NCBI GenBank assembly: GCA_937899835.1
Contig: CALCCE010000021.1
Span: 1-64,000 of the forward strand
Source: an uncultured Flavobacteriales bacterium
GTDB taxonomy: Bacteria; Bacteroidota; Bacteroidia; Flavobacteriales_G; Salibacteraceae
Direction: 5' to 3'
DNA: 64,000 nt
Part shown: piece after piece, positions 54,621-63,979 of the stretch
Layout of the letters: the number at the start of each line of letters is the position of its first letter
How positions within the stretch are numbered: the stretch's first letter is position 1
Notes under the pieces: generated by a model
Seen by the model: only the letters and a program-made list of their open reading frames with translations
What the model was told of the DNA's origin: nothing
The model's database searches: none
Made by a program: the position numbers and the translations under genes

Positions 54621-56300
54621 TTAGCGGAGAATTTTACGTACAAATGCTACCGTAAAGTAAGACATCAGAAAGAGGCCGATCCAGCCTTCTACACTGGAAA
54701 TCCAACGGACGTGGCCTTGCGGAAAGTGGTCGCCATAACCGATGGTGAGGAAAGTGATGGCACTGTGGTAAAAGGATTTGCCTACCAGACTCACTTCATC
54801 GGGCACCGAGGCAACAATGTCTCCTCCACCGCCCAATATGACCAATACATATAAAATACTGAAAACAATGTAGACGAAAATGGAGCTGGAAAGTACCCGC
54901 AGAGGGTCGGTGGCAAACAAGCCCATCTTATCAAAAACCAACCATTGAAATCCCATAGAGGGATACACCCACAGGGCGTTTAAAGACCGTTCTTTTAGTT
55001 TTTGCTCTTTCCAGGCCTTGAGTTCGCTCCGCTTGAACAAGACGTACACTTTGTCTTCGTCGATGTATTGGCCCGAGGTCCGCAGGTCTTCTTTCAGTAG
55101 CCGGTATTGTTCTGCTTTTTGCGCGGCAGTGGTATCGGGCTGTTCTCCAATCAGTCGGTCAATGCCATTCAATTGATAGTCGAGGTTCAAGCGCCCCAAA
55201 TTTCGCATGCGTTTCAAATACAACAACTTTACGTCTACGGCGGCTTCTCCGGGCTGAAAATCGACCAGATCGCGGACTACCGCATAAGACAGATCGATGA
55301 CTTGTGCTTTTGCTACCCTCAAGTCGGCATAACCATTTAAGGTAGCAGCGGTAAGGGTAATGCGCTTGGCTTTTGCTCTCAAAAAAGAGAGCTTGCCCTG
55401 ACCAAAGGTGGCCCGTTCGAACAGCACTTCGTTTGGACCAAAATCTACCCGGTCAAAAAACACGGCCCCTCTTCCGTAAAGCGTGGAGGTGAAATTGATT
55501 TTTCCCTTGCCAAACTCCGACTCACTGAAAATCACTTCTCCATCTCCAAAGTCACAACGCCTGAAGTCGGCTTTGCCTTCTCCAAACTCACACTTGCCAA
55601 AGTTGATGCGCTTGCCGCGAAAAACTGCTTTATCAAAAGAGATTCCCCCTTTGCGAAAGCGTGAAAAATGAAAATCGGTATCGCCAGTACCAAAATTGGT
55701 GTTTCGAAAACTCACCTTACCTTCTTTGAATAAGGCATTGACGAAGAATACATTTCCACCCTGAAAAATGGCGCTTTCAAAAGTGGCGGTGCCCTTGCCA
55801 AATTCGGCAAAACGAAAATCAACACTGCCTTTGCCAAAATAGACCCGCGAGAAGTCTACATCTCCTTCTTTAAAAAGACACTTATTGAAATTGATGTGTC
55901 CTGATCCAAAAGTGGCGTTATCGAATTGCACATTGCCTTGGAACTCAGCTCCAGAAAAATCGGTGGTGCTGTCGGATTCAAAAAAGGCGCGGTGCGCATT
56001 GAAATTGCGCAAAATCACCGGGTCGGTGTTCTCCATGTTTTGCCGCATGCGAAAAGTAGAAAGCGACAAACCCGACACGTAGCAGTGGTTGAAATCTACC
56101 TCGGTATCGGAGAGTAACCGTTGGTAAATGTCTTCTTCGGTAAGCAAGGCATAATCTTGCGAGGCCACAATGTTGCCATTTGCATCGATAAACGACACCG
56201 CAATGGTTTGCTTCGACAACACTTGATGATCGATCATAAAAGGTTGATCGATGATGGAGGTCTTGTAAGTAGAAGGTATTTGATCCAGGAGGCCGATCAT
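54621..56300 (-). CDS. Potassium-channel-like protein with a 12-residue Phe-repeat beta-helix domain
   Basis: A 559-residue membrane protein. Residues 126-317 form 16 units of exactly 12 residues, with Phe at position 1 (126, 138, up to 306) and Phe or Tyr at position 6, usually followed by a Gly pair (FNKCLFKEGDVD, FSRVYFGKGSVD, FRFAEFGKGTAT). This is a pentapeptide-repeat relative that should coil as a beta-helix. After a helical linker (about 360-450) come two membrane helices with the pore signature TIGYGD at 519-524, the selectivity filter of K+ channels. The N-terminal 115 residues are a small separate domain. It probably opens on a signal sensed by the repeat domain. Confidence 0.87.
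   Translation of the reverse strand: MIGLLDQIPSTYKTSIIDQPFMIDHQVLSKQTIAVSFIDANGNIVASQDYALLTEEDIYQRLLSDTEVDFNHCYVSGLSLSTFRMRQNMENTDPVILRNFNAHRAFFESDSTTDFSGAEFQGNVQFDNATFGSGHINFNKCLFKEGDVDFSRVYFGKGSVDFRFAEFGKGTATFESAIFQGGNVFFVNALFKEGKVSFRNTNFGTGDTDFHFSRFRKGGISFDKAVFRGKRINFGKCEFGEGKADFRRCDFGDGEVIFSESEFGKGKINFTSTLYGRGAVFFDRVDFGPNEVLFERATFGQGKLSFLRAKAKRITLTAATLNGYADLRVAKAQVIDLSYAVVRDLVDFQPGEAAVDVKLLYLKRMRNLGRLNLDYQLNGIDRLIGEQPDTTAAQKAEQYRLLKEDLRTSGQYIDEDKVYVLFKRSELKAWKEQKLKERSLNALWVYPSMGFQWLVFDKMGLFATDPLRVLSSSIFVYIVFSILYVLVILGGGGDIVASVPDEVSLVGKSFYHSAITFLTIGYGDHFPQGHVRWISSVEGWIGLFLMSYFTVAFVRKILR
55350..55925 (-). repeat. Twelve-residue protein repeat, 16 units
   Basis: These bases encode residues 126-317 of the channel-like protein as 16 units of 12 residues. 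Position 1 is Phe in all units; position 6 is Phe in all but one (Tyr), apart from the degenerate last unit. Period is 36 bases throughout, without slips. Confidence 0.85.
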
Positions 56301-59188: not shown

Positions 59189-61921
59189 CTATTGGCGCAA
59201 CCATTTCAGCAATTGGCGTTTGCTCTGGAGGTCTTCAAAGAGCCAACTGCTGTAGGCCAAAGGAAAAACGGGTAGGCCGGCCCGTAAAAAACTGGAATAT
59301 CGTTGCAGCGGTATCGCCTCAAAGGTGGGCCCGGGATATCCTACCAAGTCAATACCTTTCGTTTTTCCCTGGTAGCTCACCACCAAATCCAACTCTCCGC
59401 CACCCAATCGGTAACCGGTGATCACCGTGGCTTTTTTTCCTTGAAGATAGCCGGACACTTCTTCCAAAAAGCGATCTTTTTCAGGAAACTCCTCCCGATT
59501 TCCTGATGCTTCAGGCACCGCGGGCGTTTGCTCAATAAACTTTCGAATCAGCCATTCATTGCTCAAACGAGCCGGATTGAAGGAATAAAATACCTTTTGA
59601 AAATCGCGCGCTCGGGTAATGGCTACATTCAACACATCGGGACGATTCAAGTGCCGCCATGCGCTGGGATGGGCATCGTCATCGAGCGCCAGAGAAAGCA
59701 ACATGATGTCGCGCTCCTCCCCTTGAAAAGCATACGGTGTGCCTATAAATATGCGGTGCTTGGTTTGATCGTTGTATTCGATCACTCCAAACAGCTTTTT
59801 TCTCAAATAATCGGTTTGATCGGTAAAAGGAGACAAAATGCCAATGCTTGGTGCCGCATGTCCGGTGTACTTGCTGTGCCGCTCCACAATTTGCTGCAGC
59901 ATTTGCAGCAACCGATCCGCTTCCCGGGCATTGACACCCTTCTCGTTCCGGGTACCTGCCACCTTAATGAAACGCAAGCCAATGTCTCGTTCCTTGCCAG
60001 GAACGTGGGTCATGATCTTGATGTTCGACCCGTAAAACTGTTCGTTGCTAAAGCGGATGATCTCAGGTTTTGACCGAAAGTGCTCGTCCAAAGCATTGAC
60101 CTGGTCTCCACGTTCTAAGCGGCTCAGGCACACATCCAGCAGACTTTTTTCACGGTAATTGTGAATAAAATCACCTTTAAAGTTCAAGCCATAATATTTT
60201 CTCAGGTGTGCCTGCCGTTCGGTGGAGACAAATGAAAGGTGGCGCAATTGATTGGGATCGCCTACGACCAAAACCCGTTTGGCACGTTGCAAAGCAGGCA
60301 ATACTGAAGCCATATCGCATTGCGTAGCCTCATCGATAATGACCAGATCGAAGAGTTCTTTTTGGAGCGGTAGGGCCTCATTGAGTTCGGTATGGTTCAC
60401 CAGCCAAATCGGAAAGGCTTTCAATATGGATTCCCAATTGACCTTGTCAAAAAAGGCTTCCCTTTCCGCCAATCGGCGTGTCATTAAACCTTTGTAAAAA
60501 TGGCTAAAGGCTTCGTAGTTATTATAATGTTCGCGCTTACGCAGGTATCTTACCTTGAGCCTCAAGTATTCCAACTGGGCATGCCTGAGTTCTTTTTGCA
60601 GCTGCAACCATTGTCCTAACACCTTTGGTAACATGAGTGACAAAGGAGAGGTGATTTTCAACTTCCACCTTTTGAAACGAGTATGGAGACTGCTTCGGTT
60701 TTCTAACTTAGACCACGATTTACCCCAGTTTAGGTCTTTTTGCGCCTCTTTGTCAAAACGGTTAAACACCGCATTAACATCCTTATTCAAGGAAACCATA
60801 GAAGCTTCCTGACGCTTTAGTTCAGCTTTAGCCTGCGAAACTGAAATGGCTGGATAACCGCTAATTAGCTGCTTAACCATCCTGCGAAGCGGTACAATTC
60901 GATTGCCCTTCCCACCGACTACAGCCACTTTGGCTAAGCCAATGTCAGCTTCAATTTTCCGGACCACTACATCGATTGCGGGATCTTTCTTAGCGCAAAT
61001 CAACACACTTTCACCAACCGAAAGGTGCTCTACTGCCACCGCAGCAATTGTAAAAGACTTGCCAGTGCCCGGTGGACCGATGGCCACCGACAATGGAGAT
61101 TTCGAAGCCGTGGCCACGATATTCTGTTGAGGCTGGCTCAAGCTCACAGGCACCACTCCCCTCCTTACCATTCTGGGTGAACTCGCTGCTTTGTTCAGCA
61201 ATATTTTGAGCGGTAGCGAATGGTCCTTCAGTTGCCCTAAAAGATCCAATTCATGCAACACACCCAGCGCACCCGTAGGCTTTCGAACCAAACCAAAGCC
61301 TCCAACCGGCAACACTTTCCCGTGCCACCGTTGAATTTCGTCGGGGTGAATGGAAGCTCGTAAACGTTTATCGGAATACAACTTGGGGTAGAGCCGCAAT
61401 TCTTCGGCATTAAGGCCCGGAGCGTATTGCTCTAAGGCCCGGACCAGGTTTCCGATGTTTCCAAAATCAGCTTTTCCCTCCAGCGAGCCCACCAACTTCA
61501 GTTCGCTACCGGCATCGAGCCAATCTTTGCTCTGCAACCACTTAAGCAACGGAAAATTCCAGATCCGGCGGTCCAAATCCACCTTAATGAAATAGTCTTC
61601 TTCTTTTGCTTCTATGCTGGCAGGGTGAAAAAACAAGGGAGCACAAGTGCGCTGGCTTTTGGTCAGGTTGCCATTGCCCGGACCAATCACTACCGAAGAG
61701 AAATAAAGCAACTCTTTTTCGCCGGCATAGAGTTGCAGCTTCTCATAGATTTTCTCGCCCTTTTTGTGCGGCACCGGTAGCAGGGGCATTTCACCGTTCA
61801 GCAATTCCTCTTTTACGTAGAGGTGCCGGTGCTCCACCTTTCGGTCATAAAGGTCCCAAACCGCAGTTTCGCGGTTGTCGGCCTGGTAACAGGCCTTGAA
61901 ATAATTGATGCTTGCCTGCAA
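59189..61921 (-). CDS. UPF1/DNA2-like SF1 helicase with C-terminal Vsr/DUF559-like nuclease fold
   Basis: A 910-residue protein. After an unassigned N-terminal domain (about 1-260) comes an SF1 helicase of the AAA_11/AAA_12 type: Walker A GPPGTGKS at 282-289, IIDEATQCDMASVLPALQ, VVGDPNQLRHLSF, EHFRSKPEIIRFSNEQFYGS, IGILSPFTDQTDYL and YAFQGEERDIMLLSLA with VLNVAITRARDF. The last 85 residues (GGGELDLVVSYQGKTKGIDL, then PVFPLAYSSWLFEDLQ) look like the Vsr/DUF559-type nuclease fold often fused to such helicases, but the usual Glu and following Asp-Gly of the active site are altered. The start is TTG 61921, 4 bp after the previous stop. It is the last gene of the operon. Confidence 0.88.
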   Translation of the reverse strand: MQASINYFKACYQADNRETAVWDLYDRKVEHRHLYVKEELLNGEMPLLPVPHKKGEKIYEKLQLYAGEKELLYFSSVVIGPGNGNLTKSQRTCAPLFFHPASIEAKEEDYFIKVDLDRRIWNFPLLKWLQSKDWLDAGSELKLVGSLEGKADFGNIGNLVRALEQYAPGLNAEELRLYPKLYSDKRLRASIHPDEIQRWHGKVLPVGGFGLVRKPTGALGVLHELDLLGQLKDHSLPLKILLNKAASSPRMVRRGVVPVSLSQPQQNIVATASKSPLSVAIGPPGTGKSFTIAAVAVEHLSVGESVLICAKKDPAIDVVVRKIEADIGLAKVAVVGGKGNRIVPLRRMVKQLISGYPAISVSQAKAELKRQEASMVSLNKDVNAVFNRFDKEAQKDLNWGKSWSKLENRSSLHTRFKRWKLKITSPLSLMLPKVLGQWLQLQKELRHAQLEYLRLKVRYLRKREHYNNYEAFSHFYKGLMTRRLAEREAFFDKVNWESILKAFPIWLVNHTELNEALPLQKELFDLVIIDEATQCDMASVLPALQRAKRVLVVGDPNQLRHLSFVSTERQAHLRKYYGLNFKGDFIHNYREKSLLDVCLSRLERGDQVNALDEHFRSKPEIIRFSNEQFYGSNIKIMTHVPGKERDIGLRFIKVAGTRNEKGVNAREADRLLQMLQQIVERHSKYTGHAAPSIGILSPFTDQTDYLRKKLFGVIEYNDQTKHRIFIGTPYAFQGEERDIMLLSLALDDDAHPSAWRHLNRPDVLNVAITRARDFQKVFYSFNPARLSNEWLIRKFIEQTPAVPEASGNREEFPEKDRFLEEVSGYLQGKKATVITGYRLGGGELDLVVSYQGKTKGIDLVGYPGPTFEAIPLQRYSSFLRAGLPVFPLAYSSWLFEDLQSKRQLLKWLRQ

Positions 61922-61925
61922 GCAA

Positions 61926-62324
61926 TCAGTCCATTAAAGTGCTGAAGGCATCAAATTCCAGGGTTCCTCCCTGCTCTACCAATACCTTCAGCGCCCGGTT
62001 TACTTTAGAGGATTCTAAGCCCAGTTTAAGGCCCAATTCCTGGCAAAACGACAATTCTTCGGGATGGGTTTTCAAGTCCATTTGCATCATCATCAAGGCC
62101 TGGTAGAACCGTTTACGGTTTTCCATTTCGTCGTATGACCGGCGAAACATCACCATATCGGGATTGGCTACCACTTTGGTAAATTCTTCGGGAGCAATGC
62201 CGAGGTGCATGGCTACATTTTTTACCAATACCGCCTCGTGGGCATCTACCTGTCCGTCGGCTTTGGCCAGTTCAATAAGTTCAGCCAGTTGGCTTTTCTT
62301 TACTTCTAAATCGGTGCTTGACAT
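61926..62324 (-). CDS. TerB-like domain protein
   Basis: A 132-residue soluble helical protein. The N-terminal half resembles the TerB/DjlA domain family: SQLAELIELAKADGQVDAHE with the acidic pair, then VLVKNVAMHLGIAPEEF. The rest is helical (MMMQMDLKTHPEELSFCQEL). TerB-like domains are often found with nucleases, phage-resistance and metal-stress proteins. It lies 4 bp before the helicase and 57 bp after the PLD-family gene on the same strand, so all are cotranscribed. The function in the operon is not known. Confidence 0.85.
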   Translation of the reverse strand: MSSTDLEVKKSQLAELIELAKADGQVDAHEAVLVKNVAMHLGIAPEEFTKVVANPDMVMFRRSYDEMENRKRFYQALMMMQMDLKTHPEELSFCQELGLKLGLESSKVNRALKVLVEQGGTLEFDAFSTLMD

Positions 62325-62381
62325 GTTGTTGTAAATTAGGGGTTAATGATTGGGAAACCAGTTGTGGTTTCCAGGATGTAA

Positions 62382-63071
62382 TCAATAGTCTTCGGTAGTA
62401 TTCCACAGCTTTTCAAATTCCGCTTCCAAGGTGCGGACTGCTTTGGGGTCATCGGAAAAAAAGAGGTTTTCCCAATTGTATTCGGCAGCACTTCGGGTCC
62501 AGTTGTAGCTACCGCTCAAGAGGGTGTAGCGATCGAAAATCGCAAACTTGTGGTGCATGTGGTGGTCGGAAACATCCATACGCACCGGCACTCCCGCCTG
62601 GGCCATGCGGGCGATGTCGGAGCCTTTGTCCAGCGACTTTTCATTGTCGGTAATGATGCGGACCTTCACGCCGAAGCGGTGCCGTTCCATAATTACCTCG
62701 ACCAGTCGGTTGTCGCTAATGGTAAAAACGCAAATATCAATTCGGGTGCGGGCTGCCTTGAGTTGAGCAATGATGGCATCTCTGCATTCAGGCCCCGGGC
62801 TGGTGTAAACGCGTAGCGAAGGCCCTTTTTGCCGAGAGGGCAACAAGATTTTGTTGGCCTCTTCCAGCCATTGAATGACTTCGAGGGTGCTGTGTTCTTT
62901 GGTTTTGGCGCGCGCCAGGTCAAAAATCTGTGCCCGGATAACGCCCAGTTCTTGTAGATCGGGGCTTTGCTCCCTCACCAATTCGCGCAAGGCTTTGCGT
63001 TCGCCACGGCTCAACCAACCGTCTTCAAACGATTGCTCAAAATAGTGCAGTAGTTCTTCTCTTGGGGTCAT
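62382..63071 (-). CDS. PLD-family nuclease-like protein with TerB-like N-terminus
   Basis: A 229-residue protein from ATG 63071 (TPREELLHYFEQSFEDGWLS); a TTG at 63110 is less likely. Residues 1-80 are helical and TerB-like (GWLSRGERKALRELVREQSP). Residues 85-229 form a phospholipase-D fold with one HKD motif: HHKFAIFD at 173-180, followed by SGSYNWTRSAAEYNWEN as in Nuc/PLD nucleases. One HKD per chain implies that two chains make one active site. Members cut DNA or RNA; a role on nucleic acid fits the helicase in the same operon. It starts 51 bp after the repressor stop. Confidence 0.88.
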   Translation of the reverse strand: MTPREELLHYFEQSFEDGWLSRGERKALRELVREQSPDLQELGVIRAQIFDLARAKTKEHSTLEVIQWLEEANKILLPSRQKGPSLRVYTSPGPECRDAIIAQLKAARTRIDICVFTISDNRLVEVIMERHRFGVKVRIITDNEKSLDKGSDIARMAQAGVPVRMDVSDHHMHHKFAIFDRYTLLSGSYNWTRSAAEYNWENLFFSDDPKAVRTLEAEFEKLWNTTEDY

Positions 63072-63122
63072 GAGTGGTTCAAAAATAGGAAGGACAGTTC
63101 GCCTGCCCAACGGTACTCGGAA

Positions 63123-63908
63123 TCATTTGCCGGCTTTCAATTCCTGGATCGAAGCTTCTAATCGGGCCATCCGGTTCATGAGTTCTTCCACGCCATTGCT
63201 GCTTTCGGGCTGCAACTGCAGCACACCATTGATACGCCATACCTCTTTCACCAATTTCCAGGACAACTTTTCGGATCCATGGTCTGGGTGATCGGCTTGC
63301 AGTTCAACACTGGAACCTTGATGGTGCAGTCTCCTTATTATTATGGTATCCTCCAACACCCACACGTAGCGGTGATTTTCGGGCAATTGTTTCCATTCTT
63401 TTGTGGGAACGGGTTCTCCGAACACCAAATCGCCATGCTGTAAGCCTGCATTACCCACCGCCATTTCGTGCCCACGTACCTCTAAAGCTCTGGTGGCGGC
63501 TACGATGGGGAAAGGCATTTGCAAAGGGGCCAAAGTGGCCAAATAAGCTTCTTCGTTATAATGACGGCAATACCGTTGTACCTCGTGGGGAAGTACCACC
63601 CGAACCACCGGGGGCTGGTCCTCCGCTGCGGTGTTGGTCATGCTGGAAATGCTTTCCGAATTCCAACCTTTGGAGAAGGGTGCGAAGCCCGCCAGCTGGT
63701 TGACGGTAATCTCTTTAGTTAGCAAAACCTCCAAGGGTATACTAAAATGGTTAGCTATTCGTGTAGACAAGTCTAATTTTGGCTCGGCTCTCCCCTCTTC
63801 GTAGGCTCCGATATTAGCACGCTTAATCTCAAATATTTCGGCAAAAGCAGCCTGAGACAAGCCTTTAACCGTTCTTATTTTGCGGATGTTCTTTCCAATA
63901 GATGACAT
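63123..63908 (-). CDS. XRE-family repressor with S24/LexA-like C-terminal domain lacking the catalytic Ser/Lys
   Basis: A 261-residue transcription regulator. The N-terminal helix-turn-helix (about 5-62) has GLSQAAFAEIFEIKRANIGA. The C-terminal part (about 138-225) follows the S24 peptidase plan: ALEVRGHEMAVGNAGLQHGD corresponds to the nucleophile block, but GHEM replaces the usual GDSM, so the Ser is Glu148. DTIIIRRL corresponds to the Lys block and has Arg. A short coiled coil (VEELMNRMARLEASIQEL) ends the protein. It is therefore probably a ligand-binding, not self-cleaving, repressor. It is the first gene of the four-gene operon and likely controls it. Confidence 0.87.
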   Translation of the reverse strand: MSSIGKNIRKIRTVKGLSQAAFAEIFEIKRANIGAYEEGRAEPKLDLSTRIANHFSIPLEVLLTKEITVNQLAGFAPFSKGWNSESISSMTNTAAEDQPPVVRVVLPHEVQRYCRHYNEEAYLATLAPLQMPFPIVAATRALEVRGHEMAVGNAGLQHGDLVFGEPVPTKEWKQLPENHRYVWVLEDTIIIRRLHHQGSSVELQADHPDHGSEKLSWKLVKEVWRINGVLQLQPESSNGVEELMNRMARLEASIQELKAGK

Positions 63909-63917
63909 AGAACGAAA

Positions 63918-63979
63918 TTTGCTAATTTTATTAGGATATATAAAATATTTTAGTATATTTGTTAAACAAATTTAGCAAA
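63918..63979. promoter_or_regulatory. Candidate operator region upstream of the repressor operon
   Basis: TTTGCTAA (63918-63925) and TTAGCAAA (63972-63979) are inverted copies of one 8-bp sequence, and between them lies the near-palindrome TTTGTT-A-AACAAA (63958-63970). The stretch is very A/T-rich and lies just before the repressor start at 63908. TATATTTG at 63954-63961 matches the Bacteroidota -7 element for a gene running rightwards out of the window. Repressor binding here is inference. Confidence 0.45.

What the first reader, a model, noticed from the sequence alone, without database searches (positions are those of the whole stretch)
59189..63908. Four-gene repressor-TerB-PLD-helicase operon, candidate defence or DNA-repair system
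Seen: four genes in one direction with gaps of 51, 57 and 4 bp: an XRE/S24-fold repressor, a TerB-like/PLD-type nuclease, a stand-alone TerB-like protein and a UPF1-type helicase with a Vsr/DUF559-like end. Known: helicase-nuclease fusions, PLD nucleases and TerB domains each recur in phage-defence or stress loci. Inferred: a nucleic-acid-processing system held off by a repressor that senses a signal without self-cleavage. It does not match DISARM, restriction-modification or any named system I know, because no methylase or specificity subunit is present.
Basis: partly seen in the sequence, partly recalled or inferred. Interest (0 to 1): 0.8.

Follow-up and report, generated by a model that had tools for sequence, protein, structure and literature searches.

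The report
Repressor-controlled arm of PspA membrane-stress locus
The four genes are real and lie in one row, but they are not a stand-alone defence system: they are one arm of a two-way membrane-stress locus whose repressor faces a conserved three-site switch, with an otherwise solitary helicase-nuclease attached at the end.

Summary
Confirmed: four same-strand genes with gaps of 51, 57 and 4 bp: XRE regulator with degenerate S24 domain, single-HKD PLD hydrolase, TerB-like protein, and UPF1-like SF1 helicase with a C-terminal MTES_1575 (Vsr-like) domain. The four-gene system claim fails its own refutation test: the helicase was found in 13 further genomes (two as split halves), never beside XRE or PLD. 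Just past the window, divergent from XRE, lie CesT/Tir-like, PspA, YqiJ-like and flotillin genes, a published kind of phage-shock-protein (PSP) operon. In a phylum-wide survey all 9 other same-class CesT-PspA loci carry a divergent XRE relative, against 0 of 14 in other classes. Palindromes (TGCTAAN5TTAGCA) occupy the shared promoter region and hold up in held-out loci (21 sites against 2.1 in shuffles; control 2 against 1.3). PLD adjoins XRE in four other genomes; TerB lies at the far end of the same locus in relatives. Best reading: XRE represses both arms of a membrane-stress locus; PLD and TerB are recurrent accessories; the helicase is a local addition, probably co-transcribed. What PLD and helicase do is unproven; phage defence is neither shown nor excluded. 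New variant of a known kind.

The parts
63123..63908 (-). XRE regulator: HTH_3 plus degenerate Peptidase_S24-like domain and C-terminal coiled coil-like tail
   Evidence: Pfam; conserved HTH R..IGAYEEGRAEPK in 14 relatives, no conserved S24 Ser
62382..63071 (-). PLD-family hydrolase with one HKD motif and a helical N-terminal extension
   Evidence: Pfam PLDc_2; HxK and GSYNWT invariant in 9 relatives; solved relatives MitoPLD, Nuc, NucT
61926..62324 (-). stand-alone TerB-like protein
   Evidence: Pfam TerB 2e-7; relatives at the far end of the same locus in G001, G003, G028
59189..61921 (-). UPF1-like SF1 helicase, 910 aa, TTG start
   Evidence: Pfam, PDB matches SEN1/UPF1, family alignment
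59192..59539 (-). C-terminal MTES_1575 (Vsr-like PD-(D/E)xK) domain of the helicase, with atypical D..IDLIGYPG motif
   Evidence: 7 of 8 family members match Pfam MTES_1575; alignment
63920..63936 (.). operator-like palindrome O1, TGCTAATTTTATTAGGA (11/12)
   Evidence: motif confirmed in held-out loci
63939..63955 (.). operator-like palindrome O2, TATAAAATATTTTAGTA (8/12, weak on its own)
   Evidence: position conserved across relatives
63961..63977 (.). operator-like palindrome O3, GTTAAACAAATTTAGCA (8/12, weak on its own)
   Evidence: position conserved across relatives
63954..63961 (+). TATATTTG, a match to the Bacteroidota -7 element TAnnTTTG, facing the CesT-PspA arm
   Evidence: pattern match; consensus from own knowledge
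62353..62372 (-). 8-bp hairpin GGAAACCA-CAAC-TGGTTTCC in the PLD-TerB gap, without a T run
   Evidence: read from the gap sequence

Best explanation
The genes are the left arm of a divergent membrane-stress locus. XRE binds palindromes in the about 230-bp shared promoter region and represses both arms (the sites are shown by conservation and a held-out test; binding and repression are inferred). The right arm makes a CesT/Tir-like chaperone, PspA, a YqiJ-like membrane protein and a flotillin; the DUF3686 AAA+ ATPase that follows in relatives lies on another short contig here. A stress signal or partner acting on the degenerate S24-like domain releases XRE without self-cleavage (inferred). The left arm then also makes PLD and TerB, recurrent accessories of this locus, and, so far in this genome only, a helicase-nuclease of an otherwise solitary family (co-transcription inferred from the 4-bp gap). 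Most likely job: membrane maintenance with an added hydrolase; the helicase's contribution is open.
For: A survey seeded only by the CesT_Tir_1 family: 9 of 9 other same-class loci have a divergent XRE relative, 0 of 14 in other classes. Palindromes: discovery set 25 against 2.5 in shuffles; held-out 21 against 2.1, largest of 500 shuffles 8; loci without XRE 2 against 1.3. XRE-PLD adjacent in G001, G003, G028, G029, each divergent from CesT-PspA-YqiJ-flotillin-ATPase. TerB beside the ATPase in G001, G003, G028. Ravi et al. describe this operon and a PLD gene in it in some Proteobacteria (PMC11237479).
Against: No binding or expression data. O2 and O3 are weak in the window's own sequence. PLD stands away from XRE in G200, G220 and G401. 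Several same-class loci lack PLD. A hairpin in the PLD-TerB gap could limit read-through. Helicase membership rests on one genome.
Confidence: 0.7

Rival explanations
1. A four-gene anti-phage or DNA-repair system: the repressor senses infection or damage, and PLD nuclease plus helicase-nuclease degrade invading or damaged nucleic acid, working like Mokosh (helicase plus PLD) or DISARM.
For: PADLOC and NCBIfam matches to MkoA/MkoC, ProA and Hhe helicase cores and to DrmC, DpdK and MkoB PLD domains; helicase family patchy.
Against: Matches cover only shared cores, not whole proteins. The four genes are together in no other genome examined. No named defence genes among the scanned neighbours. 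XRE and PLD travel with PspA genes instead.
Confidence: 0.1
2. The helicase is an unrelated neighbour that happens to sit 4 bp after TerB; only XRE, PLD and TerB belong to the stress locus.
For: In 13 other genomes the helicase has other neighbours, and PLD loci in relatives lack it.
Against: A 4-bp gap on the same strand with no TAnnTTTG element upstream of TerB or the helicase; G612 has it 55 bp after a PrkA-DUF444-SpoVR-PrkA row, so stress operons may recruit it.
Confidence: 0.45
3. Within the same locus, the PLD acts on phospholipid such as cardiolipin and not on nucleic acid.
For: Best solved relatives are MitoPLD/Zucchini, deposited as cardiolipin hydrolase; its conserved company is membrane genes.
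Against: The nucleases Nuc and NucT also match, and Zucchini itself is known as a nuclease.
Confidence: 0.35

Closest known systems
CesT/Tir-PspA operon with band-7/flotillin, YqiJ and AAA+ ATPase (Ravi et al. 2024, PMC11237479); Pseudomonas bac cluster (PMC10948618)
   Same: CesT/Tir-like, PspA, YqiJ-like, flotillin and large AAA+ ATPase genes; PLD reported in some Proteobacteria.
   Different: Here a divergent XRE regulator with palindromic sites, a PLD and TerB on the other arm, and a helicase; the words XRE, S24 and helicase do not occur in the main text of that paper.
CoCoNuT type III-B (PMC11090510)
   Same: UPF1-like helicase fused to a Vsr-like domain.
   Different: No McrB/McrC-type genes among the genes scanned near the helicase; the helicase lies by unrelated genes elsewhere.
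Mokosh
   Same: A helicase core and a PLD domain that match its models.
   Different: Only cores match; no other genome examined pairs this helicase with this PLD.
DISARM (DrmC)
   Same: PLD-family protein and a helicase.
   Different: Helicase is UPF1-type; no methylase or DrmAB found.
Ter stress systems
   Same: TerB domain; helicase relatives near TelA (L016) and PP2C (L010).
   Different: No TerC, TerD or TerY kinase-phosphatase triad identified here.

Membership tests
CesT/Tir-PspA-band-7 PSP operon | adjacent CesT/Tir-like and PspA genes | tested here: met
   CesT_Tir_1 at C21:64139-64531 followed by a PspA gene; relatives score CesT_Tir_1 5e-53 and PspA_IM30 4e-37
CesT/Tir-PspA-band-7 PSP operon | flotillin/band-7, YqiJ-like and AAA+ ATPase genes in the row | tested here: met
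   YqiJ-like and start of flotillin on C21; ATPase on contig C249, so its linkage in this draft is inferred from relatives
CesT/Tir-PspA-band-7 PSP operon | role in envelope stress | not testable with these tools
   needs experiment
CoCoNuT type III-B | UPF1-like helicase fused to Vsr-like nuclease | tested here: met
CoCoNuT type III-B | McrB GTPase and McrC partner genes | tested here: not met
   none among the annotated neighbours in the window or the helicase flanks scanned; not every gene was scanned
DISARM | DNA methylase with DrmA/DrmB | tested here: not met
   only DrmC-like PLD similarity, well under its cut-off
Mokosh | full-length MkoA plus MkoB, or MkoC | tested here: not met
   matches cover the helicase core and part of MkoB/MkoC only
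Self-cleaving S24 (LexA/CI) repressors | catalytic Ser | tested here: not met
   His in the window's copy; A, E, T or S in relatives
Ter system | TerB with TerC/TerD or TerY-P partners | tested here: inconclusive
   TerB only among genes scanned

The most novel reading that the evidence does not exclude
A PSP membrane-stress response with a repressor-controlled nucleic-acid-processing arm: membrane damage, for example by a phage, turns on a PLD nuclease and a UPF1-Vsr helicase-nuclease together with PspA repair, so one switch couples membrane rescue to nucleic-acid destruction.
Probability: 0.15. Interest if true: 0.7.

Novelty: new variant of a known kind. Interest (0 to 1): 0.42.

Why it matters
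It names a probable regulator and its binding sites for the CesT-PspA kind of envelope-stress locus in one bacterial class, for which the papers read here name none, and so makes that switch directly testable. It also records a solitary UPF1-Vsr helicase family with changing neighbours, several of them stress genes, and it corrects a tempting defence-system call.

Tried and rejected
Defence-island reading: rejected as the main account. Mobile origin of the helicase: one full-length plasmid relative (Persicobacter megaplasmid); only partial core matches in phages and viral contigs; GC of the four genes matches the window. TerB-like N-terminus of PLD: not significant. PDB profile search with the helicase C-terminus: chance-level hits only. 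AlphaFold model of the helicase from three sequences: mean pLDDT 32, unusable, so no fold search was made. Wider regulon: 13 places with at most one mismatch in the genome, fewer than the reversed-pattern control of 24, so none shown. Sigma-70 promoter and terminator scans: no excess over shuffles. Anantharaman et al. 2012 on Ter systems was not held.

Full report
What is there. The four genes are on the minus strand in the order XRE, PLD, TerB, helicase, with gaps of 51, 57 and 4 bp. Pfam gives HTH_3 with a weak Peptidase_S24 match, PLDc_2, TerB, and the AAA_11/AAA_12 pair of UPF1-type helicases. The helicase end matches MTES_1575 in seven of eight family members, with an unusual motif (D...IDLIGYPG, no ExK), so its activity is uncertain. 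The PLD keeps HxK and GSYNWT in all nine sequences aligned. The XRE has His where a self-cleaving S24 protein has Ser, and its relatives vary there.

The four are not a unit elsewhere. The helicase family occurs in 6 of 35 genomes of the family including the window's own, 4 of 392 phylum genomes including its own, two Tenacibaculum loci, a Persicobacter megaplasmid and, in the class sample, also G612 and G621. That is 13 genomes besides this one: G001, G002, G003, G004, G008, G192, G225, G402, G612, G621, two Tenacibaculum and Persicobacter; in G002 and G621 it is split over two contigs. No XRE or PLD relative lies in the flanks fetched around any of them; some flanks are short because contigs end. 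Tenacibaculum has a TerB about 8 kb away. Neighbours differ: TelA in G008 and PrkA-DUF444-SpoVR-PrkA directly upstream in G612, PP2C in Tenacibaculum, a vWA protein and an L,D-transpeptidase in G003 and CreD in G004. Several are stress genes, but I have no background rate, so this is only suggestive.

What XRE and PLD do travel with. Divergently from XRE, starting at contig position 64139, lie a CesT_Tir_1 gene, PspA, a YqiJ-like gene and a flotillin gene running off the contig. In relatives the row continues with a DUF3686 AAA+ ATPase and TerB genes. Ravi et al. 2024 describe this CesT/Tir-PspA-band-7-YqiJ-AAA+ operon and note a PLD gene in it in some Proteobacteria (PMC11237479). A survey seeded only by the CesT_Tir_1 family found it in 24 of 392 phylum genomes, own included; all nine other same-class loci have a divergent XRE relative and none of the 14 from other classes does, within 1.5 kb. 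PLD follows XRE directly in G001, G003, G028 and G029, but has no XRE relative within 1.5 kb in G200, G220 and G401. A tandem TerB pair follows the ATPase in G001 and G003 and one TerB lies beside it in G028; the ATPase fragment of the window's genome (contig C249) is not followed by a TerB. That TerB moved to the other arm here is a fair inference, not shown.

The switch. Reading ten XRE/CesT intergenic regions showed palindromes TGCTAAN5TTAGCA, usually three at similar positions: 25 matches of at least 9/12 against 2.5 in shuffles. Because I picked that motif from these same sequences, that comparison alone is biased, so I tested it on nine loci from the survey not used to pick it: 21 against 2.1 (largest of 500 shuffles 8), eight of nine significant alone; eleven loci without XRE gave 2 against 1.3. 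Some held-out loci are close relatives of each other, so they are not nine independent tests, and some of those regions have only two sites. In the window O1 is strong (11/12), O2 and O3 weak (8/12); O2 and O3 touch a TATATTTG element. No TAnnTTTG element directly precedes TerB or the helicase, which suits co-transcription but does not prove it. A hairpin in the PLD-TerB gap might reduce read-through.

How it most likely works. XRE holds down both arms; membrane stress, through an unknown ligand or partner of the degenerate S24 domain, releases it; PspA, chaperone and flotillin mend the membrane, and the left arm adds a PLD hydrolase and TerB. Whether PLD cuts lipid or nucleic acid is open: its solved relatives include MitoPLD and the nucleases Nuc and NucT. 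The helicase is either a local recruit or a chance neighbour; the evidence does not decide, and I rate the two about equal.

Limits. Everything here is comparative sequence evidence. The genome is a draft of 307 contigs. Neighbour annotation covers the genes I scanned, not every gene.

Noticed in passing
G000:C252:98551-98567 (L133:1501-1517): The only perfect TGCTAAN5TTAGCA elsewhere in the genome lies about 30 bp upstream of a 105-aa gene that looks YbjQ-like (by eye); one perfect match is within chance for a genome this size.
   Followed up: partly
L100:1015-11034: In G612 the helicase follows a tight PrkA-DUF444-SpoVR-PrkA row with a 54-bp gap.
   Followed up: partly
L016:8894-13370: In G008 the helicase has a C-terminal extension (1072 aa) and is convergent with a TelA gene.
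   Followed up: partly
L117 intergenic region: In G200 the sites appear changed to CGCTCAAAGCTTGAGCA, perhaps a co-evolved operator.
   Followed up: no
window 54621-56300: Pentapeptide-repeat protein fused to an Ion_trans_2 channel domain.
   Followed up: no
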